A stretch of DNA of 64,000 bases from Owenia fusiformis. Taxonomy: Eukaryota > Annelida > Polychaeta > Sabellida > Oweniidae. Location of the stretch: assembly GCA_903813345.2 (NCBI GenBank), contig CAIIXF020000001.1:44969885-45033884 (forward strand), read 5' to 3'. A program made the position numbers and the translations under genes. Positions 26,816 through 63,688 of this stretch are shown here, one piece after another. The notes under the pieces were generated by a model. It was not told the origin of the DNA and searched no databases. It worked only from the letters and a program-made list of their open reading frames with translations. The first letter of the stretch is position 1. Each line of letters begins with the position of its first letter.

Positions 26816-26819
26816 ACAG

Positions 26820-28700
26820 AGACTTTCACATTGTGTTAAGTAGAGAGTCCTTTAGAAAACAGTTGCAATACCAGGCATACCTGTTCTTTAACAACTACAA
26901 CGACTACTTTACTTCTCTGTGAATCCGATTTAACTTTCGCCTATAGCCAAGTGGGTATAATAAATGTAAAATAAGTATTTTATCGCCACTTAGAAGTTGA
27001 TAGCAAGGTTATTTTCCCCAGATCCTACCCTTACTGTCTAACATAAACCATGAGCTAATCAGTCATGTCCAAATAAGATTTAAATATATAACTCGACATT
27101 TCCAGATGTCGTTCAAGTGATCTGCGAGTACGGTACACTCCTCGAATTATTTCTGAACTATGTCAAGTAAAACTGCGCATTTCGGACTATGTTCTTAAGT
27201 TATTGCTCGTCTGTTTGATCCTAGCTAATGCCCTTGTCTCTAGAATCACTGATTCACCCACCTAACTTGTCTTGTAATTGGTCTACAACATAATACCTTA
27301 GTTAATTGCATAATTTAGTAATTAATCTGGTTATGGTTTGCGGCCTATTGTTTCAAACAATTCCTCATCTAGGCGTCAATTCCCCAGGCATATTATTTAT
27401 ACACTAATCTTTGTAAATTATGGCATTTTCAGTTATTAATTTGCGCTCGAATATATTTCTTTGAATTGTGATTTGATCTTTCGTGGATAACGTTTATGTT
27501 TATGGCCAGTTCTCCGAAAACAGTAAGCTGACATTCCTATGGAGCAATTTTCAAGTCTCGAAGACATCAAACTCGTTACTTCCACGATCCGTCAATACAT
27601 GTTCACCTTAAAATAATATTTAAATTACTATTTGTATATGCTTAACCATTGTTTTAAACCAATGTTTTGTTTGGTGCTACTTGTCATATAACCGATTTTT
27701 GCCAAAGGTTGTTCTTGTTTCCGCTGATTTCAGTGTTTCATTACGTTTCCTCGTTTTCAAGAGCAGAGATTTATCCGTCGGCATTTCATGTGTCACCAAA
27801 CAAATAACAGGTTTAAACTCACAACGTTTTTCATCTCCCGACTCTGGACCTGAGTGTATTTCTTAAAGATGCAACAATAAGTGCAGAGGGGCCATTTAAC
27901 GACCATCGACCAGTGTCAAAATATATTTAAGTTTGGATATTTCACCAAGACTAACATATATTTTTATATTCTACAAAGAAACCACCTGGAAAAACATTAT
28001 TTCAGCTGATATCCACTTGAAACCCGGGCTTGAAACGTGGTGGATCTTATAAATCTATAACTGGGACCCCTTTATAGAAGCTTTGAACTGAATTGACACT
28101 TTTTAATGCTGAAATTGATAGTTTATCCATTCATTTTAAGAAAATAGGTATGTCAAAGAAGATATTTTTTAAATGATAGCTCAGAAAAAGTAAAAAGTTT
28201 CGAATTTTCCATACAGGCCTTGTTGCCCCTTTAATTTGAAAAATCAACTTTATTTTGACATTATGATTTATGGCTTATGAGGCTCTACTGTGTTAATTAA
28301 GACTTGAGTAGACAAGATCCTAGTAGAAACAATCATAAAAATGATCATTACTAAATATTCAAAAAGTCAAAGTGATACTTTTATATATCTACATGTAGAA
28401 TAACATCCACAAATGAAGTTTTATCAGCTTCGAAAAAACGATTTCTCGGTCAGGTGGATTCCTCATAGAATCCAAATATAAAATGGAAATAAAAAATATG
28501 CCTTTGTATTGAACGGATCATAATTTCTTCATAATTTCAACGACTGATTCTATGAGGCTCAAAAAGGATTTGATTGATGATATTGGGAAAAAGAGTTGTT
28601 TCATTTCTTAGGGTCTACAAGTTATAGATACATTCAAGATCGTAACCGAAGCTCACACACTACTCAGATTGTCAACATTATGTTATGTTTTGACAATATC
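26820..28700. other. Intergenic region between two minus-strand genes
   Basis: It should hold the promoter and 5'UTR of the beta-lactamase-like gene and the end of the lectin gene's transcription unit. I see no exon, no clear TATA-box and no repeat with definable ends. Confidence 0.4.
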
Positions 28701-43349: not shown

Positions 43350-46300
43350 ATGGACTTTGACGCAACTCAAGCTGTAGACTTTGACTGTACACAGGCCATT
43401 GATGATTTCCCTGAGGAAGATTCCAAGCAGAACGTAAGTTTATGTGGGATGAAAATTCTTTGTACCTACAAGTTCTCTAATTACATAAGCTTTGAACAAT
43501 TACATAATTTAGTACCAAACATGGCTTAGTTTGTAAAATATCATGAATTCAAATTCAAAAATGACTGTTAAATCCAAAGTGCACATGCGCATGATATCCA
43601 CACAGAGTGTTTTCTGTGAAGCACCATCTGTATTGGGCGAGTAAGTTATTTCATAGAATAGATCATAGTTTGCATTCAGTTTGACATTTCAACCCTCTTC
43701 TATCTTAGAGACTATAATATTGTAGGTTGGGAAATTGGTAGTTGCAGAACAAAAAGGATTCCCATTTACTGAGTTTGTACTGCAAAATGGTAAGTCTATT
43801 AATATAATACCATTCATTGACTCCTCATGGTCATATCTTGTTATTTGGTCCACATGTTGGATAGTAATAATACAATATAAGTATGTTTCATACAATATAA
43901 TTATGTTTCATCTATTGGTTAAAAGAAACAAATACTACTCATGCACGGTGACCAAGAGTTAACAGTGCAAATCGGCCCGGTCGTGTTTTTTTAAACTCTT
44001 TAGTCGTGTTTTGTAAGAACATGGGATGCGACATTCGATAGAATGGAGCAAAAAGGTAAGAATATTCTATATTTTACAAACTTACATATCTTGACTTCTA
44101 CCTAAGATGTTCTTCTTCATACCCACGAATCTATTTTGGGGATAAATCCATCATACTTCATATCAATCGCAATTATATACCCAAAGTGCCAGAAATATGT
44201 ACTTAATTTGCATTTAGTGTTATTTAATCAAGTTTAAACAGACAATCCATTCAACAACGTGGAATAATATTCACTACTCTAAAGATCGTGTAAATATTTT
44301 AACTGTATTTATCTTAAAATTGCCATAAATGACCGTAAATGTAGAAAGTGGAGTTAACTATGGAGAAGGGACAATATAACGTCAAGGACGTGTCTTATAA
44401 TAAGCATGTTAACGTTTTGGAATTGTAAAGATAACGTTTTAGACGTGATAAAATTAACGACTTTGAATTGTCTTGTAATATTGTTCACATTGACCATGTT
44501 TTGTTGCTTAATAATGTGTCTGTGCTTCTGAAAATAATCGTATTAGTACTTTGAAGATAAGTGTTTGTACTACATGACTATTCACATATTTTGTAATTTC
44601 AGTTCCTCGGAATAAGTGCCACGCGTGCTCTTTCAAAAGCGCTCATAAGAACACTTTCCTTGAACATTATGAGAAGGTTCATCCGACTGATCTGTTCAGA
44701 ATTGACATCCCTATCCACGATCTAGTACTAAAATAAATTGAAAAACTAAATTCTTACTATCTCGTATTTCTGCTAGAAGTTAAAACTCAAAAAGTATCTT
44801 CTTAATCAATAATATAATTTATAGTTTATGTTGGTTTTATAATAATTTGCGGGCCTAGTGCGACACCCACTATTAACCAGAAACAAATAGTATGCATTAT
44901 TACACAAGCAGATCCCCACCATCTGTTCATGTATTAGTATAAAACACGGGAATATACATTATGTGTCACCCGTTTATTGTAATTTGAAGTCAAGATATGA
45001 ATAAATAAGAATAAATAAAAAAGACACATATATGATTTAACAAGATCAACAGATGTTGTAATTTAATTCGCTAGAAAACTATGTTACAGTACAGTTCATA
45101 GATCACTCATAGAACGATAGCAGCATATGTAGCGTTTTTTACCTATTGCAATTTGAAAATTAAAATTGAAATTGTATTGCATTGTGTGAGGCGAATTAGG
45201 GAATAACATCGAATCAAATTGTTAAAAATCCTGAGGCAAACCTAATAGATATTGAGCATACGGTTTTAATAACGGTGGAGTTATTCCTTACATTAGGTTA
45301 TCATATATATGCATTTACATGTAGTGCATCACAAACTAAACATTTCCTCTCATTTTAAATAAATTTATTTACGTTCATGACAGGGAAAAGTGAGTTTAAG
45401 GCCAATAGGGACGTTTTAAAATGTATTTGAGGCAAATTCAAAAATAGCAACGAGCCATTTAATGAGCGACAGGGCAATTAAAAAATAATATGACTGGTAA
45501 AATTTTCAAAATGACGAGCGACGAGGCAAAGCTCGCTTGCATTAACTATGCGTGTCTGATTCTAACCATTTTGATTTAAGTATCAAATTCGGTAGTGATC
45601 CCATAGATCAATCTTGACATATTATGTCGTACATTTGATTATTGTTAATCATTTATAATTAAGATAGTGTCACTCAGACAACAACTTCTTCCACATTGTG
45701 ATCATTTTTTGGGAAATACATAATGTTAATTGTGCTGTTTCCCACTTCCAAATCGTTAAACCTCAATGTCTCTACACGTCTAGAACGTTTCACTAACAGG
45801 TCAACGTCATTAACCGCAATCTTTTCAACACGTCTAAAGAGTTTAATCTAAAAAATATTATTCGGTCAATTGCTACTTATTTAAGCTCTTCTAACTTTTG
45901 ATTTTCGCACATATTGTGACTGCTTTCCTTATGAATCGATGTATTCATTGAATACAAGTCAGGCAAGTGATTTTCAGGCAAAAATATGTATAACACTGAC
46001 AGAATTGCTCATTTCCCGATATAACAAGACTATAGCATACGATTCGTGCAAATAACACGTTTACGAATACCTGAAGTTAAGATATATAGTATGGAAAGCA
46101 ATATAAATTACTTACTTTTACATAAAGTCAAGTGACAGCAATTTCATGACCATATTTATCAACCTACCTCTCAAATTTTCAAAAAACACGACTACAGAGT
46201 TTAAAAAAACACGACCGGGCCGATTTGCACTGTTAACTCTTGGTCACCGTGTCATGTGTGCTATTCAATTATATTGTATGCAAGCCATAATCAATGCTAT

Positions 46301-49300
46301 GTTTTAGTCACATGACGACAGACCTAACTGTCAGAAAATTATGTTGTTTTTATAGGAGAAAAGTATGTGATAGGAAGAAATGTTAAAGCAGATATTCAAA
46401 TACCTCTTAAGGTGAGTGAATTGCTATATTAATTCTTTTCAAATTTTGGCTGAAATTGACTTACACTCTTTCTTTACTTTAATGTTTAGAAATAATCACA
46501 TAGTTGAAATTGAAAATGCACATAAAGTGTATTGACATTGATCACCAATTGTCATACATTTAAAGCACTTTATGGGGCTATGTTATTTCCCTATATTAAA
46601 GTGTGAAATACAGGTGAACAATTACTGACTTCCATTTAGAACAATATATACCTGATTGTTTAAGGGTCTGTCTAAAGAGCACTGCTGCATTGAAGTGAAG
46701 GATGGAGTCACTCTTATATGGGACATGGAAAGCAGGAACAAGACCCGCAGAAACAAAGTGAGAAACAGATGAATCATAATGTCAAAATACTAAAACATTC
46801 AAATGGTCTCAATAGTAAATAATCAGTTAATAGCACAAATTAAAAGGTTCATCAGAAGCACAATAAGCATGAAAGCAAGTGCTGATATACTAACAATAAT
46901 ACATGATACATACTGTATGTACATCTTAGAAACCATATTGTTTTACTTGGTTACATATTCAAGACCAGGGTAAACCCATTTTCATATAAGCAAATACTTA
47001 TGCAAGTTTTATGATCAAACAATGAAATCAAACTGAATAAGAACACTCCATTCTCTATATGTTTTAACAGATTTGCCATTGGAAATAAAAGAAGATAGTA
47101 TTAGTTTTTACACTGAAGGTATATACAATACGTACTCTATTGATTCTATTATTTTTTAAATTGTAGATGGTACTCAGTCCAAATGTCCGCTATGAGCTGC
47201 AGAATAACAATAAACTAGTATTTGGAGATGTGAATGCCACCTTTTTGGAAATAAAAGAGGTTTGAATATTATCTGTGTATAAATTCTTTTCTATTTATTA
47301 ACCTTAGAGACATGGTTAATTAACTCATTGCTGATCATCCCCGAGATATTTCGTCTATGACGTCATAATCGTATCTGACCAACTCCAAGATATCTCGGGT
47401 TGCTGTCCATTGATTGTCACATAATCTATACCAATTATCTTACCAAATATTGTAGGGATTACTAGGGGAACATGGTTGGGTGCAATTGAAATATATTGTC
47501 ATTGGCTTCACAAATGACATAAAAAGTAACACAAAGGGTGTTCATACAGTCCATTTTATGCTAACGTGAAAATGTGCAATTTTTCTCAATTTTCCATCAA
47601 AATTGCCAGCCACCAGCATAAAACCTCCAAAAATAGCTTTGGTCAGCAATGAGTTAATGCTGTCTTATCCTAAGACATCATTAAAGAGAGAATCAGAGAT
47701 AGCGAGTAGGCTAAACAAAAAATTGTTTCAATTTTAGAATATTTTTGGCTCATGTCATTCCTTGTCATGTCTATTTTCTAAAAATCACAAAAGTGCATAC
47801 TTTATTCAAGGAAAACAAAAGATTTTTACAATAATGTATTATTTTTCTATAAGAATGGTTACCATTCTTATTATTTGGAAGAATTTAAACACTTTTCACT
47901 CATTTTCGCACTTTGAATCATTAATAACTTCACCAATTTATAACATATCGTGAATCTTTTGGGAGATATTGTATTTGATATTGTAAGGAATACATTGGTA
48001 GGTCGATTATGCATGTTGCTTGTAATTTTGTCACCCCCTATAGATCTGATTCTGCCTTTAACTGAATGTTAACTTGACATCCTAGCTAAACATTTATTGA
48101 TCATTTCAAATTAAAACTAAAACTTAATGGGATTCTCCCCTCAGCCGCTAACTTGGTTATATATTTGACTGTCATAAGACAGATATGATTTAAAGTTTTT
48201 TATTTCGATGGATGCATAAAACTTTGCATAATTTGTTTCCAGGCAACAGATGATGGTTCTGATACAGATTCCGATTTGTCTGAGATTCTTGATTCAACAC
48301 AGGTGACAATTCTTTACATTGCCGCCACACTCTAGGCAGATATGCACTTCTCAGTTCTTTAATCATTTTAGCAATAACATTTGAACTAAACACATATACT
48401 ACATTTCTAAGATATTAAATGGCTGTTGTTACCAATTATCACATGTTTTAGCATGTTAAACAGGAAATATTCCATGAAAGGTAACATTGAAACATATGAT
48501 GACGATTTTATCACGCGTCTAGGAGCTTTTAAGCATTTTGATTTGGTCATTTGTGATTGTGGGTAGTCTGCCCTGGTAATTTTGATGCTGTTTAAAACTG
48601 CATATAATCAGTGACGTAGTGATACAGTCCACCATCTCGCATGAAAATGAGTCATGTGCCTTTTGATACGGAATATGCATCATCACAATTGACCAATCAA
48701 AATGCTTAGAAACTCCTAACCATGTGATAAAAAGTAATGAAACATGTTTTTGCTTTTATCTGAATCCTAATTATAGTTCAGCACTGCATGCATTTCACGA
48801 TCTTGCTTCTTGATGTAGGGTTTCCATACAAACAACAAGTCTTCCACACAGACCCCTACAACAGCACTAAATAAGCCACCCCTGATACTCGAAACACCTG
48901 CAGTTCAGTTAGCAAAGAAAGGTGCCCTTTTTATATTGTTTTCAATAAATATTCAACGTAAGATAATCAACCTATTATAACATGCACTTTAAAAAGAATC
49001 CTAAAACACTCCAGATGGTACATATAACAGTAAAACCTGTGTATATTGAACATAAAATTGCTGAGAAAAAGGTTCAGTGTTAGTAGGTGTTCACTACAGA
49101 GAGGATGATTTATAAATAAGACGATAGAGTATGTGCGGAGGAAGGGTGTCCACTAGAGACGAATGTTCACTAGAGAGAGGTGTTCACTAATTCAGGTTTT
49201 ACTCTATATGTACATTGTGAAGTCAGAGGTAGATTCAAGCTAAGTTTACACTCGCTCAGATTTGGTTTTTATGATATGGATCACAAAATAGCTAAATATG

Positions 49301-52300
49301 TATTGTAAATGTTTTCTATAGAATCATCTGAGTATGTCTTAGCTGCTGACTCTGATTCAGAGGAGCCAATAGTGGACCAGACTCTGATCATGTATGATGA
49401 CACAGATGCTATCCCTGCAACACAGGCTTATGAAGAGGGTGAGGGATCAAAAAAAATTTAAACAGTGTGATTTTAACCTCATTCTACACTGCTATATTAT
49501 CCAAACACTCTTATTAATAACATCAGACTTTGGATTGGACGTTTTTGTGGGAAAATTGTTCTCATTGAAATTTATTTTCACACTTTTACTTTTAAACAAA
49601 ATGGCGTTTTACTTGTACAAAGCACCATGCAACTGAATTAATTTTTGTGTAGAATTAAAGTAAAAAAGATAATGAATTTATTTTTGTGTAGAATTAAAGT
49701 AAAAAAGATAAAATTAAGGTATGAAGTTTTGTATTTACTAATTTCCAACCATAAGATAGATGGATGAGACAACTGCGTACTGTATATGGTATATTTACTC
49801 CTGAATGCCTCCATGAATGATGGAAATTGATAAATTTTTAAAATGAAAAAGATCATGAAAAAATTAAAGTAAAAAAAATGAAAGTCATCTATGGTATCTT
49901 TTTGACAACTCTTACATCAGTATTCAAGCCCATTTTAAAAAATGTTTAGAAATATGAAAAACCTGGTCTTGTTGGATTGTTTAAATTATGAAACTACCTG
50001 TAAGCTCAGACAAGAAACACACTGAGAATTTTTTGTTCTTCCTTCAGATGATTGTGAGCCCAATAAATCTGGTCTGTTTGAAGCCACTCAACCTTACAGT
50101 AGACATCCAGCTGTTGATGATTCTGATGAGGAAGCTAACAGTTCAGAGTCTGACATCTTTGATAATCCAGACTCCATCCAGAATGTATGTAAAAAAGCCA
50201 TCTTATGGCAAAGTATTGACACAACTTATTATTGCCTTTTTCAAAATATTTAGAGATAGCCTTTGAACTATAAACAAATAATATAAGTTCAAGAAGTATC
50301 TAACCTCCCATTTTATGGTAAAGTTGTCTTCAATATAATTAACATGTCAGTTTAAAACAAATTAAATCTTTAGGTATAATGATACTCACATATGTAAACA
50401 TGCCTAATACAGACTAAATATCTCATTAACTTCATCAAATTTGACTTTTATTACATCATGTTTTTCTTTGTTGATTTTCAGGACAGCAAAACATTTGAGG
50501 CCACACAGGCTTATGGCAGAACCCCTCAGAAAGTAGACCCCATAGATTCCACTCAAATATTAGATGACAGCTTTGAAAATATTCCACAAACTCGCAAATC
50601 TGAACAACCAGATGAGACTCAGTATGAACTAGATGAGAATGAGACTCAGGCATTTGATGATTCAACTGATTTTAAAATGCCTAAATTACCAGGTCAAAAG
50701 AATGAAAAAGAAAGTGAACAGACACAATATGTTCTCGCAGAAGATGCTACTCAGTTAATGGATGGAGGTGCAGAATCCCCGATATACAAAAGCACCCCAT
50801 TAATATCCACAAAATCTGATACACAGTATGAGTTAGCGGATGATGCTACACAAGCTATGAATTCTGGTCCTGCACCTCTGGTGTCTAAGCTAAATTCCAC
50901 CATCAAACAAACGTCTGAATCTGATGAACAAAATAATGCAGCTGAAGATGATGCAAATGCTCCAACTCTAATGGTAGAGGATTTGGATGTTTTTAAAATG
51001 CCAACACCAGTATTTAACAGCAGAACAAAGCCTAAAGTATCCATTATTCCCCCTGTAGTAGAAGCTACAACAGAAATTGATGACATTGAAGAAACTCAAG
51101 CATATGAAGATGATGGGCCAACACAGCCCTTTGATGAGGAGGTTAATCCAACTGAGTCAGAAAATGTCACAACCAAAGAAGATGATAAAAGTGGTGCAAC
51201 TGATGAACACAAAATGGCTGCAGCACACTCAGATGATGATGCCACACAAGCTTTTGAAGATGACCTCGAGATGGAAAACCATAATGAACCGAAGGAAAAT
51301 AATGTAAAGAATGATAATGACAATGAAGAGGATGATCTTGATGAAACTCAGGGGTTTGATGATTCAGATTTTCCAAATGCTCCAACGTTTATTCCAAATG
51401 GATCACCTTCAAAGAAATCAACTCCTAAAAGAGATGAAACAAATGAAGATGCATCTGATTCAGTTAATGATGCCAATGCTCCAACACTAGCAATAAGTGA
51501 AGTACTCAATGAAAAGGCAACTCCAGAAATAGAAGACAGTGATGAGGAATCAAGCGATGATGAATCTTTGCTTCTTCCTCAGGTTAACTCTGACTTACCA
51601 ACAGTAATTTCAGATAAAACAGAAAATAGTGACTCAAAGGAAAAAGACCAAGATCACATTGGAATAAATGAAGAAAGTAAAGATGAGGAGGGAGACACTC
51701 AACCCATAGTAGACTTGGATATTCCTCAATCAACTAAAACTGCTACTGCTAATGATCTGGATGAAGATGGTGAAACACAACCAATTGAAGAGGAGCTGGT
51801 CCCTGCTACAGTTAATTCCAATGCTGAAGATAAAGAGGAAATAAATAATGTTACAAATATAGATTCTAATGAACTTAATGAAGATGATGAGACTCAACCA
51901 ATAGATGAAGACACTGACACTGTGGCAAAAGAAATTATAACAGAAGAGGCGAAAGATGAGACACAACCAATACACGAGCCTACTACATCAACTACTGACC
52001 CAACGCAATTAATTGAAACTCAGCTTATGGATGAAATAAGTGACATACCTCAAGTTAGAATAAGTCCTTATAATGATGCCATTACACCAGTAAAACAAAC
52101 AGAAGGTCCAAGAAGATCATGTCGAGAAAGAAAGTCAACAAATCTAGGTGATTTTTTACAACCAGAAAAGCCAGTTAGAAAGTCTAATAGAAAGTCAAAA
52201 TCACCTGAACCTGCTGAAACTATATCACCTCTTACTAAAGAGGAACTTCAGGCCACCCAGGCATATGGAAGTGACTCACCAGTAAAGCAGCCTGTAAAAC

Positions 52301-55300
52301 CCAATAAAAGAGGAGACAAAGATGATAATGTAAGTGCAGCTAAAGACACCTCATCAAGACGAACACTCGGGAACAAGATTACAAAACTGTCGAAGGTTGA
52401 ACCTGTTGAACTCAGTCCTGTTAAAGTACAAACACCAAATAAGAACTTAGCTGAAACTCAAGCATATGGAGATTCTGATGATGCTACTCAAGCTTATGGG
52501 GCAAGCCCAATTAAAGCACCTCTAACTCCAGAAACAAATACCAGTCCCTCAACCACTAGGAGAAGCCATGTATTTGGGAAAATGAACTCGACTGAAACAC
52601 CAACAAAAAATGCAGTTGAGGAAAAAGAACTGGTACCTGTAGGTGACAAAAACACAAGAGCAAGAAAATCAAATTTAGGACAAAATGAAGCAAGTGTGGA
52701 GACTAAGCCAAAAGAAATAGCAGAGGAAGCTCCTCTGAGTAAAAGAAAGTCAACAAGAGGAAGACAATTTATTAAGAAAGAAGATAAAGAAACTAGTCAT
52801 GAAGAGACTGCTGAAGTGTTAGCTAATGTTCCAAATGAAAAAGGTGCTAGAAATTCTAAAATTACCTTAGAAGATGCAAATAAAGTAACGAAGAAGCCAC
52901 CAAAACCGCCGACTAAGTCAAAAACCACCACAAACTCAAAAAATGATTCTGTGCCAAGTGAAGTTAAAGACACTGAAGTACCAGTGAGAAAAAGTAAGAG
53001 AAGTACAGGTGTTCCTTCCAAGGTGGATACGGGTAGAGATGACATTGATACAGATGATACTGAATCAGTATCATCAGAGGCATCTGAACCAAGACGAAGT
53101 GGCAGAGTCAGGAAAAGTATTATTCCAGTTGAGGAGAGTGGAAAAAAAGGAACGAGGGGATCCAAGCGTAATAGATCAGCGGATAGTGTCTCTGTAACTT
53201 CAGAAACCTCTGAGCCTAGTAAGAGATCTAGAAGATTGACAGAGATGAAACCCGTGTCTAAAGATGAACCCAAAAGATCTTCATCAAGGGGTAAAAAAAC
53301 TGAAGTTGAAGATGACAAACCTGCTGAAACTTTAAGTACAACCAGAGGATCAAGAAGTAAGAAAATTAGAATTGAAGATGATGAGTCAGTTGAAAAAATT
53401 ACTAGTACAACCAGGGGAGCAAGGACTAATAAAAAAACTGATATAGAGAAAGAAAAATTAGTTGAGACAACTAAAGGATCAAGGAGTAAGAAAGCCAAAG
53501 TTGAAGATGAGTCTAATGAAGAATTCACTTGTATGACTAGGGGATCACGAAGTACAAAAACTGAAAATAAAGATGATGAGCCAGTTGAGACAACTAGTAA
53601 GGCTACTAGAGGATCAAGAAGTAAAAAGATTAAAGTCGAGGATGATGAACCAGTTAAAGAAATTACCAGTACAACCAAAGGATCAAAAAGTAAAATCACC
53701 GAAGTTGAAAATGACAAGTCAGTTGAAACAATGAGTACAACTACAAGAGGAACGAGAAGTAAAAAGATTAAAGTTGAAGAGGAGCCCAATGAAAACACCA
53801 CCAGTTCAACCAGGGGATCAAGAAGTAAAAAGGCTGCAGAGGACAGTAAAACAGAGAAAAGTGGAACGTCAAGTAAAACGTGTAGAGTGAATAAAGACAT
53901 TGACGATGAAGAAAACATTTCTTCTTTAAGCAATACAAGTGAAAATAATAATGAGACTAAAGTTGAATCAGTAGTAATATCTAAATCAACTCGAGGGAAA
54001 CGTGGTGCTCAGAAAGAACTTAGTGAGGAAGTTCAGGTTAAAAAAGGGAAAAAAGGTAAGATATTTGTTCAACAATCTTGAGGAAATCTTTTTTGTAAGA
54101 AACTAAAAATTTTCTCTTAATTTATGTTGATTTGTTAACTTTAGATTGCTACATACTTTAGATAGTACATGTATATTATTAACGTCCTAGAGGTTCATCT
54201 TTACATGAAAATAGGTTCATATATGAATTCTCAGTTATCCCCTTCCTTTACAGCTGTATTTTTACAAAAATATTCAATAGGTGACTGTCACAATACAATA
54301 ATTGATTAACCCTTAAATTTGAAGCCCTCCTCCAAATGTAGTTTTAATTATAAAATACATTATTTACTGTCATAAATCCTATAGATGGGATTAAGCTAGA
54401 GGCTCAAGTAAAGTTAGAAGAGGCCCCCAAGGCAAGGTCATCCAGAGGGAGGAAGTCGGAGATGCCACCCCCTGCTCCAGCTGCTACTGGCAAAGTGAGG
54501 AGACAGAGATCTGCAGACAGCATCTCCAGCAGTCAGGTAATTAGATGTTACAATTAAGTTAGCATAAATAAGGGTTATGTACTGGGAGGTTTTGGATATG
54601 GGGTTTATCCAGAGGGAGATATGCATATCTACCCGAGGGACCATAGGGACCGAAGGTAGATGTGCATATCTCACGAGGGATGAACCCAATATCCAAACCG
54701 TCTGTACATAACTGCTTTATCCTATACCAAGTAGAGTTTTCAGGGGCATATGGCCATTTCAATAGTGCAAGGTGTAAAAATAAACAAATAATTCATATGC
54801 AAAGTCATTTTATTGCTTTTTCACTTTTAAATTTTAAATACATTGATAACTTTTTGAAATACAAAAGTGTTGTTTAACAATTAGCGGGATCAGATGTCCA
54901 GATATAACCCTTTTTTTGTTCGGCTTTTTCAGGAAAGCAACAAACTTGGCACATTTGTAGAAACATATGATTTGAGTGGAAAATGATTTCAGGGCAAGTG
55001 GTTGGGGGTGGTCTTCATGGATTTTTTTACCTCTGACCCCCACCCCTATCAGGTGGGGAGGGGTAAATTATAAAAAATAAATAAAAATGGTTTCAAAGTA
55101 TTTTTGTTTAAATGACTTCATTTGGTGATTGCTTTGAGCCTTGAAATGATGTAAAATTCATTTTAGAAGTGGTATTTAGTGAGGAAAATACATTTTAACC
55201 CAATTATCAAGGAGAAATTCATTATTTAAAGGGCCAAATATGGGACGTCCATTACTGTATTTCAAGAATGTGATGAATAATAGTCTTTAAAAAATTCACA

Positions 55301-58300
55301 GTAATAGAAGTATAAGTGTTTATTGCAGATAGAAAATATTGCTTTGGTAGCTGATGTATTCTCAGTGAAAAAAATTATCGAAATTTCAATTTTTTTGTGC
55401 ATTTGGCTCAGGGGTAACCTTATCTTACCTCAATAATTTTTAAGATAGTCAATGTATGCATCTCATATGAACTCAGAATGGTGCTTCTAGTCTTGTTTTG
55501 TCATATTATTGCTAATTAGATGTATAAAAAAGATTGGAATTAAAAAAAATTCAAATTTTTATTTTCGATTCTGAATGGCCAGGGGTAACCATATTGTACC
55601 TTAATAATTTTCAAAATATGTAATATATCCATCTCAAATGAGCTCAAAATGGTGCATCTAGTCTTGTTTTGTCATAAAATTGCTAATTAGAAGTAAAAAA
55701 AGATTGGAATTTTTTTTAAATTTAATTTTCATTTTCGCTTCTGAATGGCCAGGGGTAACCATATTGTACCTTAATAATTTTTAAAATATGTAATATATCC
55801 ATCTCAAATGAGCTCAATATGGTGCATCTAGTCTTTCTTTATCATGTTAACCCTAATAAGATGTAGAAAAATGATTGATAATTCTTAAAACTCTAAATTT
55901 TCATTTAAGCTTCAGACAGTCCAGGGGTAACCATATTTAAGCATAATAATTTTCAAGATATGTAATATATGCATCTCAAATGAGCTCAAAATGGTGCATA
56001 TAGTCTTGTTTTATCATACCCCAAATAAGATGGAGAAAATTACTGGACATTTCTTAAAAATCTGAATTTTCTATTTGACCATATTTTTAACATAATAATT
56101 TGCAATGCATAACATATGCATCTTAAATGAGCTCAAAGTGGTTCATATACCAGAAGTCTTGTTATCATATTTCCCCTAATGATATATAAAAACATAATTT
56201 GACATTTCTAAATATCTAATATCTAAAAATCTAAATTTTATATTTGATGTTTTGACAGCCCAGGGGTAACCATACTTAAGATAATAATTTTCAATGTATG
56301 TTACATATATGCATCTCAAATGAGCTTGAAATGGTGTATATAATCTTGTTTTGTCATATCATTTCTGAGGAGGTGGAAAAAATGATCAGATTTTGATTTA
56401 GCTTTTGACTGGTTATAGGTGGCCTCATTTTACCATAATAATTTTCAAGATATGTCACATTTGCAACTCAAATAAGCTCAAAATGGCATTTTGTCATACG
56501 AGTATTCATATATTCATACTGAGATATAAAACGATAAATCAATGAAGTATTATATAAAGATATAAGGTTTAAGAACACTTGCATCACCTCTGGGTACACC
56601 TTCCATTCCTCCAAATCAGATGATTTAGAGTAGTACTTAAATGCAGATGTGACATCGCATAGAATGATTGAATGAAAAATGGGGAGGACTAAACTTTGGT
56701 CATGGCCAATTGATCTTGCAATATCATGCACAGATAGTTATTGAATGGATTTTCTTTTACCAAATGCAATCCAAGATGTAGTGGGAACAAGAGGGAGCTG
56801 TCCTCCTTCCAGGCATCAACACTGAAACCCTCAAGAACATGGCAAGATGATAGTGACCAAGTAATGCAATGTCTTAGGCGCCTTCAAGGATATTTCTCCA
56901 TACGAGAGACTGCTTCAATCATTGCCTAACAGTTGATTTTGATGTGGTTTATCCTGGTGGCAACTTGTGCTGAAAAACTGAAAATGTCATTTTGGATTGC
57001 ATATGGTAAGGGGAAATCCTTCCAATACCTACCTGCCCACAATATTACAAGACCACTTGGCCATGACCAAAGTTTAGCCCTCCCAATTTTTCATGCAATC
57101 ACTGGATTTGATATGTCACCTTTGCATTCTACTACTTCTCTAAATCATCTGATTTGAAGGAATGGAAGGTGTATACCCAGAGCTATTGCAGTTGTTTTTA
57201 AACTTTGAATCTTTTTTAGAAACATTGCAGTTGTAGAGTCATTTGTTATTCTGATGCATTCTAACCCACAGTTTCTATCACCACATGAATGTGGTTGGAC
57301 TACTCCCACTGCTGATACTGAGGCCACAACATATGAAAATGTAGGTCCTATGAGGCGGATATCTGTATAATAACAAAAGATGTTGCATCCGAGGCATGGA
57401 AAAAACTTGTTTAATGTTTAAGGAGTGTTGTGGGAACATATGCAAATGTTTGAAATCATATCTCATTTGCTTTGGAGACTGTCAGAATCTATAAATCCTG
57501 ACCTGTTTGATTATGTTTTATGGATTTGGATTATATTTTCAAATGATTATACACAGAATCTTAATAATGCTACAACTCAGTATAAACTGGACTGTCAAAC
57601 ATTTTCAAATCTTAGAAAAGTGCTCGATAAAACTATAGTACAGTATTGAGCTACTGGTACTAAAAAGGAATAAATGTATGTTGTGATTCTTTATATAAAT
57701 AAATAAATGGATGTTGAGATTTTTTATAATTTTTTTAATCATTATTTCTTATTTCAGAAGGAATAAATGGCAAAACTTGACTATAATCAACATTTTGAGC
57801 TCGTTTGAGTAACAAGTGTGATATATCTTTATTTAAATTATTACGGTAAAATGGCCGTAAGAATTAGTTTCTTTGTTTTGCGTCCCCTTGCTTGCATGAT
57901 TTTGAGTAATCAGAAAAAAACAAACACATCCAAATAGCAACCACAATGGTCTGAAAGTAACATCGCATTTCATTCAATCAGAATCAGACGAAATGGCGGA
58001 TAAATTGATGTGCGTCAAAATTGACAGTGTTATTGATTACTTGGGCATACATTGTGTATTTTTTTTTACCCTTGAATAATACCTATATTTAAATATATTG
58101 TATAAATGTATAGATCTGTGTTTGTATCACTGCAAATTGGTATGTCATTCCTTTTAATGCCCATAAAATATACATTTCTCAGCAAACAAGTTTGTGTTTT
58201 TTGAGTTTGTGTTTGTTTTCCTTGTACCCTTGCATGATTTGGATTTTGCCAGGACGCAAAACAGAGAATCTAATTCTTATGGCCTACTATGAAAATATCA

Positions 58301-61300
58301 TTTTTCAAGTTTCCAAACATTTTTTACATTCCCTAGAAATAATATATGACAAAAGAAGATTAAAAAAACCTTTAAAGCTCATTTGAGATGCTTACGTCGT
58401 GTGCTTTGAAAATTATTAAGGTAAAATATGGCTACCCATAGGCCACAATAAGCTAAAATGAAAATTTAGATTTTTAAGAAATGTAAAATCATTTTTCTAC
58501 ATCTAATCAAGGGCAATCTGATAAAACAAAGCTATATGCACCATTTTGAGCTAATTTGAGATGCATATATTACATATCTTGAAAATTATTAAGGTAAAAT
58601 ATGGTAACCCCTGGCCTTTTAGAAGAGAAAATGAAAATTCGGATTTTTGAAAAATTTCCAATAATTTTTTTACATCTTATTAGGAATAATATGACAAAAC
58701 AATACTCTATGCATCATTTTGACCTCATATGAGATGCATACATTGTATATTTTAAAAATTATTAAGGTAAAATAAGGTTACCCCTGAGTTGCATGCACTT
58801 AAAAATTGAAATTTCGAGAATTTTTTTCTCAAAAAACACATGAGCCACCCATGTTATATTTTCTATCTGTGATAAACACTTAAACCTCTACTACTATGAA
58901 TTTTTTCAGGACTATCAGACATCACATTCTTGAAATACAGTACTAGATGTTCCGTATTTGGCCCTTTAAACAACGAATTATTCTTAGATAATTGGGTTAA
59001 AATGAGTTTTTCTTGCTACAGACAACTTCTTAATTGGGTTTTACACAATTTCAAGGCTCAAAGCAATCACCAAATGAAGTCATTTAAAGAAAAATACTTT
59101 AAAACCATTTTTATTTAATTTTAACAATATACCCCTCCCAGTCTGGTAGGGGCGGGGGGTCAGAGGCTAAAAAATCCATGAAGACCACCCCAAATCACTT
59201 GCCCTGAAATCATTTTTTACTCAGATCATATGATTCTACAACTGTGCCAAGTTTGTTGCTTTCCTGAAAAAGCCGAACAAAAAAAGGACATCTGACCCCG
59301 CTAAATGTAACAAAAGGATAAATGTATCCAACACCGACCGTGCATAACAGATGTATTTCATACCTACTGAGGTTCTAGGTTCATCATACCTTATAAAGAT
59401 CCAAAATTCCAAAACATAATTAAGGTACGCATTTTGTTGGTCTTAAAGTTTGCGAGATTTTCAAAAAATGTGCAAAAAAAAAGAAATTAAAAAAAAGTGA
59501 AAAAATTGAAAAAAGAAATATTTTGATTTTTTTTAAATTAAAAAAAAATTTGAAAAATTCAATATTTTTTTAAAAATGTGAAGTGAAATTACCGGAAGCG
59601 GGAAGATATGCACCGAAGCGGGAGATATGGCGGGAGATATGGAGGTTCTGGATATGGAAACCTCAAAATCAGGATACGGGATATATCTTACCAACTTATC
59701 TCCCTAAAACTCTACTTGGCATAGGATAAACAGGATTATTTTATCCCATGGGTTGCCCAGAACCATCTGATGTTCCCAGCCATAGTCCTCCACTACAGGC
59801 AAGATCACATTAATTCAATGTGTCGCAATCATCTATTGGCTTTCTATCCTGCATTAGGAACTAAAGACATCCATTTTTTTGGATCAAAATTCAGTTAGGC
59901 CTCATCATGGGAAAGCCAAATACATGAAGTCATATTTGAAAAAGATGTTCCTAGAAAAGGACCTTATACACCCTCCATTGGGATCTCCCCATGGGAAAAA
60001 AATAATTCATCTGATTTTTCAAAATGAGTAGTCTGCTTCAATTATTACAATTATATGCACACTAGTATCTTGTTGACCTATATTCAGCACTGTATTGATG
60101 TAAAGGCCACTTATTAGGGTCATAATTCAATCATGAAGTGTAGAGGCATAGATTCCAAACCAGGAAGTATTTTTGTGTCTTTCAAAATCCATTTACATCC
60201 TACGCATCCCTGCATCTTATCCAAATATGTTACTACATAATGAAATATAATAGTATAATCTTTGGTTTTACAAACTTGTATGATATTTGATAATTGTAAA
60301 AGTTGTTTTAGGAGCATTTTTCTATAGCCATTTTGTAGGGGAAAAAATGATGAAAAAATGTACAATCTTTTAATTTTAAGTATGACCTGAATCGATTGCA
60401 AACTCCATATTTGCACATTTGATGAGATAAACAATTTGTGTCGTATTGTGAAATTATTAAGTTTGCAATAGATTCAGGTCATAGTGTATTTTTGGTATTT
60501 CTGTGATAGTCAATGGAAACCAATGGCCTCTATTGGGATCTGCTGATATCCTCATGTTAAGTCAATGGTGCACAGCCCCATGTAAGTCAATACAATCTTA
60601 CTGAACGAAATGATCCCTATCTCAGCTTATGTGTGTCCGAGCACTTTCATATTTTCCAAAGTATTATATGACATTTTATTCTTCATGTTACACCTACGAA
60701 TGATTCATTTTGACCATAGGGATATTTGCCAATAATTGCACCTTGTCCTTTCTATAATTTCTAGTAGAAATTATCTTTTAATTTTAATCCTATTGTACAT
60801 GTATATATTTAATACATTTTGCTTTGTGCCATTCTCATTATAGAAGAGTGACCCTGGCTCACCAGCGAGGCTGTCCAGACCTCCAGTTAACACTAGCAGT
60901 CCCTCTCTGAGAGCTCCCTCCATCAAGCCTCGGATACTTTTTACTGGGGTTGTGGATGATCAGGGCCAGAAGGCAAGTGAATCTTACATCTATCAATCAC
61001 AGTTTCTGCATAGACTGATAGAGATTTGTATTTTTCTTGCATATCTTCCCATTAACAATGAGATCAAAAGATTAAGTCAACAATAAAGCAGTATGAGTAC
61101 CAAGATAGCAAGCATACCATAAACATGTACATCCAAAAAGTATATTACGCATAAAGTTAACGCATAAATGAATTTCATAGCACTCAGAGACTGTATCAGG
61201 AATTAAGTAGAAAATTAATTTCTTTGTTATTGAGGGAATTTAGGTCACCTTTGTGAAAGTAAAATCATTGACATTAACAGCAGTGATCCAGTTCTAACCA

Positions 61301-63273
61301 TTTTTGTATACTTTATATTTATGATTCGTATGTTTTAGACATTGAAGTCATTGGGAGGGGAGCATGTACAAACAGTTGCTGATTGCACACATCTTGTCAC
61401 TGATAAGGTAATCTGTCTTTCTTTATACCTAGCTTTTGGTGTTGTTCAATTTCCGACAGTAAATACTAAATATCACAAATATGAGATGTAGCTAGCCCCA
61501 ATTAATTGAAAGTGGCTATGTTAACTGTTTTCAATGTTATTTTGCTTGCATTATTTAATATGCATTGATGGATGTCCAGAGGTTCAATGCGAGACTCCTC
61601 AATTAAGACAGTATTGTATATAAACGAATTGTAACTGCATTTTTTATCTCTCTGCACAATTAAGAACACAGAATCCCTTTAATGATTACACAGTACAAAC
61701 AAACAAAATAAAAAACACCATGCAAATAATTGCATTAAGTTGCCCTGTGCATGCATGATAATCTCGGAATCTGATTTCAATATGTGACATTTATTATGTC
61801 CCTTGTTTATGAATATGGCACAATATGGCTTTGTTACAGGTGAGGAGAACAGTGAAGTTCCTTTGTTGTATTGCTAGGGGTATACCCATTGTTTCAACCG
61901 TGTGGCTGGAGAGGTGCAAAGATGCTAAAACATTCCTAGGTAAAGTGACTCATACAATACATACATGTACAATGTACTTTACTGTATACAATTACAACAT
62001 ACTAAAACTCGTTTAATCATGAGGAGGACTGCAAGATAAGTGGTGACAGTAGAAGAACATAAATATATGTAAATCCCATATGTTTCATAGTGTGCACAGT
62101 ATAACAGTTGTAAAATACACTTTGAACAGTACTTACTGATGCTCTTGTGTGAAAGTAGTAATAAAAATCAATTGTTTTTATTAAAATAACAGCTGATTGG
62201 CGTTATGAGTAGAGCAGCTTGCTTATCATATGAGTAAACGAATTTTGATTGGTTGTGTTGAAAAGATGTTTATTTTTTATTTTAGATGCCACTCCATTTA
62301 TCATTAGGGATCAGGAAAATGAGAAGAAATTTTCTTTCTCTATGGAGACGTCTTTGAAAAAGGCCACACAGAGGCAACTATTTGAAGGCTACCAGATTCA
62401 TGCCACAAAATCAGTCAAGCCTGATGCATCACAAATTAAAGGTAACTTAGATAATATTTACTCCGAAGATTGAAAGACACCTACGTGAATCTTAAGGGAC
62501 AATGTAAAACCATAAAAACAAAGCTGAATGTGTAGATTTGGACAAAAAAAAGTTCCCCAAAATTTGCAGAATTTTATGTGATCATTCTTACATCTATAAA
62601 GTATTGAGAGTTATCCTATTATGTGGATATTAGAATTCACAGAAAACCTTACACTGCTTTTTATTTTCAGAAATAGTAGAAAGTGCTGGAGGAAAGGTGA
62701 GAGTTATTATTCACAATTAATTTATTATCCATAAATTAAAATGATGCACTGATACTTATTACTTACATGTACATGTAAATGATTTGGAAAATATTCACAA
62801 ATAGATGAAGAAACTAATTTTTTGTTCTGATCACCAGGTTTATTTAGCAGACACATTTTCTTTTTATGCTAATTTAATCTTTTTATGCACATTTACTTGA
62901 AATGTATTTTCTCTAAAAGAGTGATACTGTACCTGGGTTTGAAAGCTTTCTAATGTTTTATGGAATCAAACTATTTGTAAATCTTACACAGAATTTACTG
63001 AACTGTGAACTGCTTTCAGTTTTGCAATTCAAATATTTAAAACAAAATTTGATTGGTCTTCAGTACTTAAGCAGCCCTATGAAGAAACCTGGAAACAAGT
63101 ACGTTGTCATAGCAACAGAGGATGACCACAAGTTATGCCAGCCAATGATTGACATGGGAATCACTGTAGTCTCCAATGAGTTCATTCTCACAGGAGTGCT
63201 TCAACAAGAACTCAGTATGCAAATGTATCCTTTGAGTAAATACCATTACTCCTCAGAAAGTGTTGAATGTTAA
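43350..63273 (+). CDS. MDC1: MDC1 orthologue: DNA-damage checkpoint scaffold (FHA, TQ array, tandem BRCT), 17 coding exons
   Basis: Exons: 43350-43433, 43726-43789, 46356-46411, 46665-46757, 47167-47259, 48243-48302, 48819-48921, 49322-49438, 50048-50184, 50482-54055, 54385-54536, 60844-60972, 61339-61407, 61840-61939, 62286-62441, 62671-62696 and 63064-63273 (1740 aa). The start is accATGG; an acceptor at 43314-43315 implies a 5'UTR intron. The N-terminus carries TQAVD and TQAID, like the ATM site at human Thr4. The FHA domain (about 29-130) has IGRN (Arg57) and SKEH (Ser71, His74). SDTDSD (136-141) is an NBS1-type CK2 motif. About 27 TQ dipeptides follow, 11 as TQxF/Y, the form that recruits RNF8. 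Residues about 1200-1390 are basic TTRGSRSKK repeats. The tandem BRCT (1539-1740) keeps LFTGVV (Thr1545) and RRTVKF (Lys1583), the positions that bind the gamma-H2AX tail in human MDC1. The protein is nuclear and recruits repair factors to double-strand breaks (family knowledge). Confidence 0.95.
43944..46252. mobile_element. 2.3-kb DNA transposon with ~70-bp TIRs in MDC1 intron 2
   Basis: CACGGTGACCAAGAGTTAAC starts the left end and its reverse complement closes the right end. About 70 bp match with only a couple of differences. Both ends are flanked by TCATG (43939-43943 and 46253-46257), a 5-bp target duplication. Subterminal words such as 'acgttttagacgtg' (left) and 'cacgtctagaacgtt' or 'cacgtctaaagag' (right) recur, as in CACTA-like elements whose ends also begin with CAC. 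No full transposase is visible. The only gene-like content is the small zinc-finger gene at 44043-44736. Confidence 0.85.
44043..44736 (+). CDS. Tiny C2H2 zinc-finger protein inside the TIR element, two exons
   Basis: Exon 1 (44043-44055: ATG GAG CAA AAA G, then donor GTAAGA) joins exon 2 (44603-44736, acceptor ttgtaatttcag) in frame to give 48 aa. The product holds one C2H2 finger, C-x2-C-x12-H-x4-H, starting KCHACSFKSAHK and ending YEKVH, followed by a hydrophobic-acidic tail (RIDIPIHDLVLK). The ATG is about 30 bp inside the left TIR, as expected for an element-encoded gene. A DNA-binding accessory or regulator of the element is the natural guess; a degenerate transposase fragment is the alternative. 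No homologue is known to me. Confidence 0.45.
49026..49207. mobile_element. Pogo-like MITE (~180 bp) in MDC1 intron 7
   Basis: It begins CAGTAAAACCTGTGTATATTGAAC and ends with the inverted GTTCACTAATTCAGGTTTTACT. The interior has several 'tgttcactagagag' words. It belongs to the same end-family as 36139-36598 but is shorter. Confidence 0.7.
49638..49720. repeat. Two-copy ~40-bp tandem repeat in MDC1 intron 8
   Basis: 'atttttgtgtagaattaaagtaaaaaagataatga' occurs twice in a row with almost no differences. It is non-coding intronic sequence. Confidence 0.75.
54575..59745. mobile_element. ~5.2-kb foldback element in MDC1 intron 11
   Basis: The outermost arms are inverted: 54583-54745 (palindrome 'ggttttggatatgggg' plus 'tttatcctataccaagtagagttttcag') against about 59640-59732 ('ggatatgg', then 'aaaactctacttggcataggataaa'). 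Next come 54880-55080 against 59110-59310 (sharing 'caggaaagcaacaaacttgg', 'atttcagggcaagtg' and 'ggtggtcttcatgga'). Then tandem ~170-bp units with 'accatattgtacct.aataatttt' and 'aaatgagctcaaaatggtgcat', at 55400-56470 on the left and 57780-58800 inverted on the right. The centre (56470-57650) holds inverted fragments of a protein gene. It inflates this intron to 6.3 kb. Confidence 0.8.
56468..57650. pseudogene. Two inverted, broken fragments of a mobile-element protein
   Basis: On the minus strand, frame 56731-56468 reads IARSIGHDQS, LPIFHS and SDLEEWKVYPEV. On the plus strand, 56990-57210 reads GKGKSFQYLPAHNI, LPIFHAITGFD and then, after a frameshift, SSDLKEWKVY. The pattern 'G..F.Y.P.H.IA..LG....ALP.FHA.TGCD' is familiar from multicopy uncharacterised proteins of invertebrate genomes associated with mobile elements. 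Stops and frameshifts break both copies. A downstream piece (about 57425-57530, LLWRLSESINPD) may belong to the same protein. Confidence 0.55.
60973..60978 (+). promoter_or_regulatory. GC-type splice donor in the MDC1 BRCT region
   Basis: Exon 12 ends CAG AAG and the intron begins GCAAGT, matching the AAG|GCAAGT consensus of GC-AG introns. The intron ends gttttag at 61338. Both phases are 0 and the BRCT1 reading (DDQGQK joined to TLKSLGG) is continuous, so the splice is well supported. Confidence 0.85.
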
Positions 63274-63688
63274 CATGAAAACCATCATTCAAATCATCAT
63301 TTGTTGAGTTAAATGTATAGTATAAGAATGATGAAAGGCAAACTGTATTCAATATACTTGTAGTTATGCTTTGAAAAGACTGTACTGGCAAACTAAACTC
63401 TGACTTTATAAAGAGTGCTTATACCAGTTGTAAAACAGTTTTCCTTGACCTTACTTCAGGTACAGATTGTTTACATCAAGCAAAAGGAAGAGATGAGAAA
63501 GTTCGGTTCAAACATTAACAGTGAACGGTTTTAATCATAATTTGAACATTTATAGTACATATATAATAGTGAACTGAATTGAGGAATTGGACTTTGTTTA
63601 TGAACTGAATTGCAATGCAATGGAATGAGGATATAATGAAATGGCACAAGTTTTATTATTATAATGTTTTAGTTTGTGAAATCAAGAA

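What the first reader, a model, noticed from the sequence alone, without database searches (positions are those of the whole stretch)
43350..54055. Invertebrate MDC1 with a greatly expanded array of TQ motifs
By my count there are about 27 TQ dipeptides before the BRCT region, at least 20 of them in the 3.6-kb exon 50482-54055, in acidic surroundings such as DATQAF, ETQAYE, DETQPID and EQTQY. Eleven fit TQxF/Y, the form that in vertebrate MDC1 is phosphorylated by ATM and bound by the RNF8 FHA domain; human MDC1 has four. The acidic D/E-x-TQ spacing suggests successive unit duplication. This implies a scaffold able to load many FHA partners, or a different partner reading TQPI/TQYx.
Basis: partly seen in the sequence, partly recalled or inferred. 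Interest (0 to 1): 0.75.

Follow-up and report, generated by a model that had tools for sequence, protein, structure and literature searches.

The report
Animal MDC1 with many phospho-docking sites
This is an animal, probably invertebrate, version of MDC1, the protein that gathers repair enzymes at broken DNA; it carries many more potential kinase-activated docking sites than the human protein, plus a repeated basic stretch that may hold it on chromatin.

Summary
The window contains one complete 18-exon gene (43350-63496, + strand; [quoted passage not shown] There are 27 TQ before the BRCT, 21 in the 3.6-kb exon; 20,000 shuffles reach at most 16. Twelve (not 11) fit TQx[F/Y]; human MDC1 has four. 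In 24 of 27, +3 is F, Y, I, L, V or M, the position FHA domains read.

Fresh unit duplication of TQ segments is not supported: shared residues use the same codon only slightly above expectation. An unreported array (8 copies of a 20-23-aa TRGSRSKK unit) is truly tandem, in the place of vertebrate PST repeats.

Best reading: an ATM-phosphorylated, multivalent FHA-docking scaffold. The genome holds RNF8 and a Pellino FHA, the known TQXF readers. Five internal TQxI sites copy the N-terminal TQA[V/I] motifs and may bind MDC1's own FHA. TQ repeats in invertebrate MDC1 are already in print; the number, the +3 classes and the basic array are the new part. No relatives were available, so expansion in this lineage is untested, and 'invertebrate' itself is likely, not shown.

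The parts
43350..63496 (+). MDC1 gene, 18 coding exons (43350-43433, 43726-43789, 46356-46411, 46665-46757, 47167-47259, 48243-48302, 48819-48921, 49322-49438, 50048-50184, 50482-54055, 54385-54536, 60844-60972, 61339-61407, 61840-61939, 62286-62441, 62671-62696, 63064-63224, 63460-63496); 1736 aa
   Evidence: hand-built splice model, all phases fit, one stop at the end; no RNA evidence
43365..43394 (+). two N-terminal TQ motifs, TQAV (T6) and TQAI (T14); human MDC1 begins with TQAI at T4
   Evidence: in the alignment the T6 motif pairs with human T4
43726..47259 (+). FHA domain (Pfam stretch residues 53-119; exons 2-5)
   Evidence: Pfam FHA E 2.1e-12; PDB MDC1 FHA E 1e-5; 38 of 125 aligned residues of the N-terminal part identical to human
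48258..48269 (+). single SDTD motif (residue 136), the type that binds NBS1 in vertebrate MDC1
   Evidence: chance of SDTD within 40 aa after the FHA 0.006, anywhere in 131-940 0.11
49336..49368 (+). candidate TOPBP1-binding site VLAADSDSEEP (residues 190-200), resembles the human S168 region
   Evidence: shuffle P 0.02; suggestive only
50110..50142 (+). candidate second TOPBP1-type site AVDDSDEEANS (residues 245-255), resembles the human S196 region
   Evidence: only second-best linker match to the human S196 peptide, behind the first site; weak
48297..50508 (+). first TQ block T149-T277: TQGF, TQTP, TQAY, TQPY, TQAY
50482..54055 (+). exon 10 (residues 270-1460): 21 TQ and the basic array
   Evidence: one DNA match in the genome, itself
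50551..50853 (+). mixed TQ block T293-T392 with three 9-residue doublets (315/324, 350/359, 383/392); up to 7 TQ in 100 aa
51094..51351 (+). TQx[F/Y] block T474, T483, T524, T558
51697..52023 (+). TQPI block T675, T701, T740, T763, plus TQLI T777 and TQLM T782
52255..52491 (+). last TQAY block T861, T928, T938
53323..53874 (+). basic tandem array, 8 copies of a 20-23-aa unit with core T[R/K]G[S/T/A][R/K][S/T] (cores at residues 1223, 1246, 1266, 1288, 1311, 1334, 1357, 1379)
   Evidence: pI 9.45 for residues 1200-1400
60928..63496 (+). tandem BRCT (residues 1540-1736) with the human gammaH2AX-contact residues kept
   Evidence: PDB 2ado E 7.6e-48; 80 of 197 identical, counterparts of T1898, G1899, R1933, K1936, E2063 all identical

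Best explanation
The gene is the MDC1 orthologue of an animal, probably an invertebrate. SHOWN by sequence: FHA, acidic TQ-rich linker, basic repeat array, and tandem BRCT with the gammaH2AX-contact residues. INFERRED mechanism: the BRCT pair binds phosphorylated H2A.X at a break. ATM-type kinases phosphorylate the TQ threonines. The 12 TQx[F/Y] sites then dock FHA-bearing ubiquitin ligases, RNF8 and probably Pellino, whose FHA domains are both encoded in this genome, so one MDC1 can load several ligases at once. The TQA[V/I] motifs at the N terminus serve as in vertebrates to pair MDC1 through its own FHA domain. The basic TRGSRSKK array holds the protein on chromatin, as the PST repeats do in human MDC1. 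The many copies are kept by selection on short motifs rather than being a fresh tandem duplication.
For: Splice model with fitting phases. FHA and BRCT identity. TQ excess over shuffles. With TQ pairs held as units and the rest of residues 1-940 shuffled 5,000 times, F, Y, I, L, V or M at +3 occurs 23 times against mean 5.7 and maximum 13; F/Y alone 11 against mean 1.1 and maximum 6. SQ is absent from residues 1-940; FHA domains show acute pThr specificity (PMC11884936). RNF8 in the genome: RING 51% identical to the recalled human one, E 2.3e-18; FHA exons about 14-16 kb away on the same strand with GR and SRxH kept, then a stretch that looks like coiled coil by eye. Pellino FHA: 5 matches in a row at one locus, best E 1.2e-29. 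Published: TQXF is phosphorylated by ATM and bound by RNF8 and PELI1/2, with F/Y at +3 preferred and +4 Asp and -1 Glu contacted (PMC11884936). Three sites here (T324, T474, T558) have the form E-TQx[F/Y]-[D/E]. PST repeats bind the nucleosome acidic patch, and 5 copies bound where 1 or 2 did not (PMC6858307).
Against: No RNA, phosphorylation or binding data. No orthologue from any relative was available, so selection on TQ positions is inferred, not shown. The absence of SQ is significant in a plain shuffle (P 0.012) but not when the TQ pairs are held fixed (P 0.11). Codon identity over TQ pairs is slightly above expectation (naive z 3.0, pairs not independent), and single pairs exceed it (474/928 7 of 7 against 3.3), so some duplication is possible. 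The RNF8 FHA here is 4 residues shorter than human in the loop next to the phosphothreonine pocket, so its +3 preference may differ. ATM and NBS1 searches found nothing, and neither did their controls. H2A.X was not examined. That the animal is an invertebrate was not tested; a single Pellino locus (mammals have several) points that way.
Confidence: 0.72

Rival explanations
1. Two-reader scaffold: TQx[F/Y] sites load RNF8/Pellino, while the five internal TQxI sites (T675, T701, T740, T763, T777) are bound in trans by the FHA domain of other MDC1 molecules, because they copy the N-terminal TQA[V/I] motifs. ATM activity would then cross-link MDC1 into chains or condensates.
For: The +3 classes form blocks along the linker (11 adjacent same-class pairs against mean 6.8, P 0.026). 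Isoleucine at +3 is in excess in residues 1-940 (6, T14 included, against mean 1.4, P 0.002; 5 against 1.25, P 0.006 in 131-940). The N-terminal motifs are TQAV and TQAI. Human MDC1 (recalled letters) has no TQxI in its linker. Precedent: a phosphorylated Rad53 SCD promotes dimerisation (PMC3564818 passage).
Against: The class definitions were made after seeing the data. No binding data. That human pT4 dimerises MDC1 through its FHA is recalled, not read here.
Confidence: 0.25
2. General phospho-switch: the TQ sites are an ordinary S/T-Q cluster domain whose mass phosphorylation changes charge or tunes the ATM response, with no specific FHA docking for most sites.
For: The density meets the published SCD definition (up to 7 TQ in 100 aa) in a strongly acidic linker.
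Against: It predicts SQ as well as TQ and no rule at +3; observed before the BRCT are 1 SQ against 27 TQ, and 24 of 27 with F, Y, I, L, V or M at +3.
Confidence: 0.15
3. Recent tandem duplication of a TQ unit by replication slippage, without selected function.
For: Some places are alike in DNA: flanks of 701/740 share 71% and of 359/392 60% of 48 bases (random pairs 99th percentile 50%, maximum 60%); short direct-repeat families of 19-46 bases cover many TQ sites, the best pair 80% over 46 bases. A few pairs share codons more than expected (474/928 7 of 7 against 3.3, 740/763 6 of 8 against 3.6, 324/558 7 of 9 against 4.6). Like motifs cluster.
Against: Over all pairs codon identity is near background (591 of 1185 against 541 expected), and the most similar pair, 701/740, has 5 of 10 against 4.7. 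Tandem Repeats Finder on 50400-54100 reports arrays only at 52902-52942 and 53536-53830, outside the TQ part. The 27 TQ use six codon pairs (8, 7, 5, 5, 1, 1).
Confidence: 0.07
4. Chance in a T-, Q- and D/E-rich disordered linker, or a wrong splice model that joins an unrelated exon.
For: No RNA evidence; weak donor after exon 7 (gtgccc).
Against: 0 of 20,000 shuffles reach 27 TQ. 21 TQ lie in one open frame. The neighbouring exons 8 and 9 have TQAY and TQPY. The exon carries both a TQ array and a basic array, the order known between FHA and BRCT in human MDC1. Phases fit through 18 exons.
Confidence: 0.03

Closest known systems
Human MDC1
   Same: N-terminal TQ motif, FHA, acidic linker with TQxF, SDTD, basic repeat region, tandem BRCT with the gammaH2AX pocket
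   Different: 27 TQ against 12; 12 TQx[F/Y] against 4; 1 SQ against 21; 1 SDTD against 6; five internal TQxI sites against none; basic unit of 20-23 aa x 8 instead of 41 aa x 13 (human letters recalled)
Invertebrate MDC1 as described in print, including Drosophila MU2
   Same: FHA plus tandem BRCT and TQ/TQxF repeats (PMC11014961; MU2 'several' TQ dipeptides, PMC2672170)
   Different: PMC11014961 states that invertebrate MDC1 had only TQxF repeats; here there is one SDTD and a basic tandem array. Per-species TQ numbers were not in the text that I read.
Plant BCP4
   Same: variable TQx(hydrophobic) array (3 to 10 motifs) plus tandem BRCT (PMC11014961)
   Different: BCP4 has no FHA domain; here there are 24 TQx[F/Y/I/L/V/M] and an FHA
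S/T-Q cluster domains (SCD)
   Same: TQ density well above 3 in 100 aa
   Different: almost purely TQ with a +3 rule, which points to FHA readers

Membership tests
Metazoan MDC1 | N-terminal FHA domain | tested here: met
   Pfam PF00498 47.8 bits, cut-off 20.7; MDC1 FHA among the PDB matches, but behind a GGDEF-protein FHA and Ki-67
Metazoan MDC1 | C-terminal tandem BRCT of MDC1 type | tested here: met
   PDB MDC1 E 7.6e-48, PTIP 9.9e-35, Brc1 8.5e-16, Mdb1 2.9e-10
Metazoan MDC1 | gammaH2AX-contact residues (human T1898, G1899, R1933, K1936, E2063) | tested here: met
   all five aligned and identical; numbers for G1899, R1933, K1936, E2063 from PMC11014961, T1898 recalled
Metazoan MDC1 | ATM-type TQx[F/Y] motifs between FHA and BRCT | tested here: met
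   12 motifs
Metazoan MDC1 | N-terminal TQ dimerisation motif (function in human recalled) | tested here: met
   TQAV and TQAI near the start, human TQAI; binding itself not tested
Vertebrate-type MDC1 | SDTD repeats for NBS1 | tested here: inconclusive
   one SDTD just after the FHA, no repeat
Vertebrate-type MDC1 | PST repeats (about 40 aa, 13 in human) | tested here: inconclusive
   no 41-aa PST unit seen; an 8-copy basic TRG array lies in the same place; best profile match is the TRG core in register, P 0.026 (51 of 2000)
Metazoan MDC1 | phosphorylation of TQ by ATM and binding of RNF8 FHA | not testable with these tools
   -
PTIP/PAXIP1 | BRCT pair closest to PTIP | tested here: not met
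   MDC1 scores 43 bits higher; an FHA is present
S/T-Q cluster domain | at least 3 S/T-Q in 100 residues | tested here: met
   up to 7 TQ in 100 aa; definition from PMC3564818 passages

The most novel reading that the evidence does not exclude
This MDC1 carries two phospho-codes in one linker: TQx[F/Y] sites for ubiquitin ligases and TQxI sites for its own FHA domain. ATM would then both load ligases and polymerise MDC1, while an independently built TRG repeat array ties it to nucleosomes. This would be an invertebrate design reaching the vertebrate three-part layout with different units.
Probability: 0.2. Interest if true: 0.7.

Novelty: new variant of a known kind. Interest (0 to 1): 0.45.

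Why it matters
Why most MDC1 orthologues have several TQXF motifs is posed as a question in PMC11884936. A natural MDC1 with 12 TQx[F/Y] and a separate block of TQxI sites gives a ready series for asking how copy number and the +3 residue decide which FHA partner is recruited. If the animal is an invertebrate and the basic TRG array binds chromatin, tethering by repeats would not be confined to vertebrates, against the published statement that invertebrate MDC1 has only TQxF repeats (PMC11014961).

Tried and rejected
Fresh unit duplication of TQ segments: not supported by the codon test over all pairs or by Tandem Repeats Finder, although some pairs and short repeat families are alike and like motifs cluster. 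SQ avoidance as an independent signal: weakened (P 0.012, but 0.11 with TQ held fixed). TOPBP1 sites: a local alignment of residues 131-269 to human 139-230 was not significant (65 of 1000 shuffles as good), single motifs only at P 0.02-0.045, and both human peptides point best to the same place here. RNF8 by its FHA alone: nothing; found by RING plus FHA family hits. ATM by TAN and NBS1 by PF16508: empty, as were the controls, so uninformative. CHK2: 14 matches at the 1e-12 cut, all in the kinase part; that cut would hide a weaker FHA match.

Limits of the exon-by-exon genome searches: the BRCT search (15 matches) and the FHA search (19 matches) list none in this window, although the gene is there, so a miss says little. 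One search looks for DNA likeness only; a diverged second gene would not show.

Dropped rows and choices: the pairwise TQ tests left out the two N-terminal TQ and pairs closer than 18 residues. The spacing result (4 of 24 linker gaps equal to 9, P 0.0025) and the +3 classes were chosen after seeing the sequence. Stretches covering all 19 FHA matches were fetched (18 stretches); only L012 was read, because the script meant to compare them found no files.
Full report
What is there. The + strand of the window carries one complete gene from the ATG at 43350 to the stop ending at 63496. I read 18 coding exons by hand. Every phase fits, and the product is 1736 residues with a single stop at the end. 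Introns are GT-AG except one GC-AG donor after exon 12. The last intron has a U12-like donor (gtatcctt) and a branch-like ttccttgac; the U12 consensus is recalled. The donor after exon 7 (gtgccc) is weak. Exon 10 has one DNA match in the 498-Mb genome, itself; a diverged second gene would not show there. There is no RNA evidence.

Identity. The C-terminal 198 residues match solved MDC1 tandem BRCT domains best (E 7.6e-48), ahead of PTIP (9.9e-35), Brc1 (8.5e-16) and Mdb1 (2.9e-10). Identity to human is 80 of 197, and the five residues that contact phosphorylated H2AX are all kept (numbers from PMC11014961, except T1898, which is recalled). The N-terminal part has an FHA domain (Pfam E 2.1e-12). 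By sequence its best PDB hits are the FHA of a GGDEF-domain protein and Ki-67, with MDC1 close behind, so the FHA alone would not name the family. FHA plus tandem BRCT is what 119 metazoan MDC1 proteins share in PMC11014961 (passages and part of section 10).

The TQ array. There are 27 TQ before the BRCT and one inside it; 21 are in exon 10. Shuffling gives at most 16. Twelve are TQx[F/Y] and twelve more have I, L, V or M at +3; the other three have P or E. When TQ pairs are held as units and the rest of residues 1-940 is shuffled 5,000 times, 23 such +3 residues are seen against a mean of 5.7 and a maximum of 13. The +3 position is a key determinant of FHA specificity (PMC11884936). Only one SQ precedes the BRCT. 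In human MDC1 the counts are 12 TQ, 4 TQx[F/Y] and 21 SQ.

Classes of site. The sites fall in blocks: mostly TQx[F/Y] at 149-277; mixed L, M and TQY sites with one F at 293-392 (three doublets 9 residues apart); F/Y at 474-558; I at 675-777; Y at 861-938. Same-class neighbours exceed chance mildly (P 0.026), and the classes were drawn after seeing the data. The I class copies the N-terminal TQAV and TQAI motifs, which sit near where human T4 lies. My lead, not a result, is that MDC1's own FHA reads them.

Origin of the array. If TQ units had been copied recently, shared residues would use the same codons. They do so 591 times in 1185, against 541 expected from codon usage (naive z 3.0), while the basic array next to it does so 143 times in 221 against 88 expected (naive z 7.7). 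The pairs are not independent. Against this reading, single pairs do exceed expectation (474/928 7 of 7 against 3.3), short DNA repeat families cover many TQ sites, and the flanks of 701/740 share 71% of 48 bases. Old duplication kept by selection, or repeated gain of motifs, fits better than fresh slippage, but some local duplication is likely in the history.

The basic array. Residues 1217-1400 hold eight copies of a 20-23-residue unit such as ATRGSRSKKIKVEDDEPVK, visible in part as a 69-base tandem repeat. It lies between the TQ array and the BRCT, where human MDC1 has 13 PST repeats. Those are basic, bind the nucleosome acidic patch, and bound with five copies but not with one or two (PMC6858307 passages). 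Single-molecule work agrees that the PST region tethers MDC1 to chromatin (PMC10319438 passages). The human unit (recalled) is 41 residues with a core such as ATRGRKNRSS. A profile comparison puts the two TRG cores in register, but only at P 0.026 (51 of 2000). I treat this as like in place and charge, with homology unproven. PMC11014961 says the full set with PST is found only in mammals, PMC6858307 says PST is conserved in vertebrates; neither mentions such an array in invertebrates in the passages that I read.

Other motifs. One SDTD stands just after the FHA (residue 136), where chance gives it 0.6% of the time, though 11% anywhere in residues 131-940. Two acidic serine motifs resemble the human S168 and S196 TOPBP1 sites (named in PMC9288427), but the support is weak.

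Partners. RNF8 is encoded in the same genome: a RING with 51% identity to human (E 2.3e-18) and FHA exons on the same strand 14-16 kb away, with the human-like DNKSxNG and GIPLPN segments and then a stretch that looks like coiled coil by eye. That these form one gene is inferred from position, strand and likeness. The FHA keeps the phosphate-binding GR and SRxH but is 4 residues shorter than human in the loop between them. The human Phe+3 is held by an insertion loop (PMC11884936); whether it is this loop I do not know. If so, this RNF8 may accept a wider range of +3 residues. A Pellino FHA is also encoded (5 matches in a row at one locus). ATM, NBS1 and CHK2 searches were uninformative, and H2A.X was not examined. 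The exon-by-exon BRCT and FHA searches listed nothing in this very window, which shows how little a miss means.

How it most likely works. Breaks are marked by phosphorylated H2A.X, MDC1 binds through its BRCT pair, ATM-type kinases phosphorylate the TQ sites, and RNF8 and Pellino dock on the F/Y class. With twelve such sites, one MDC1 could hold several ligases. The first step rests on conserved residues, the second and third on published human work plus the +3 rule seen here, and the multivalency is inference.

Which animal. A single Pellino locus, where mammals have several (PMC11884936), and 41% BRCT identity to human suggest an invertebrate; this was not tested further.

Novelty. TQ repeats in invertebrate MDC1 are already reported (PMC11014961; MU2 in PMC2672170 passages; PMC11884936). 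My searches for papers on TQ arrays in invertebrate MDC1 (listings read, selected papers opened in part) showed none giving TQ numbers per species or a TQxI class, within the open-licence library only. So the kind is known, and this is a marked variant of what I saw described.

Noticed in passing
window 43944-46251 (intron 2): A 2,308-bp mobile element with 83-nt inverted ends (92%) starting CACGGTG and a 5-bp target duplication TCATG; 13 full-length or nearly full-length copies at 97-100%, this one included, among the 40 of 350 candidates scored. Only a weak zinc-finger-like 44-aa frame was found inside. The ends recall the Transib/RAG group (recalled, untested).
   Followed up: partly
window 54882-59304 (intron 11): A fold-back element of about 4.4 kb with long inverted arms (503 nt at 83%, 138 nt at 92%) and 14 other long copies at 93-97% among the 32 of 3190 candidates scored; it makes up most of the 6.3-kb intron.
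   Followed up: partly
window 63225-63459 and 60973: The last MDC1 intron has a U12-like donor gtatcctt and branch-like ttccttgac; the donor after exon 12 is GC.
   Followed up: no
window 50956-50967, 51376-51387, 51475-51486 (residues 428, 568, 601): The motif NAPT[L/F] occurs three times in the acidic linker; no reader known to me.
   Followed up: no
L012 1953-2069 (-): The RNF8 FHA of this animal is 4 residues shorter than human in the loop between GR and SRxH, which may change its +3 preference.
   Followed up: partly
window 8789-9244, 17802-18164, 22311-23138, 26453-26851, 29262-29819, 31046-31504: Other reading frames: collagen-like, C1q, DUF3471, beta-lactamase-like, kringle and C-type lectin (Pfam; collagen, DUF3471, kringle and lectin are below Pfam's cut-off).
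   Followed up: no
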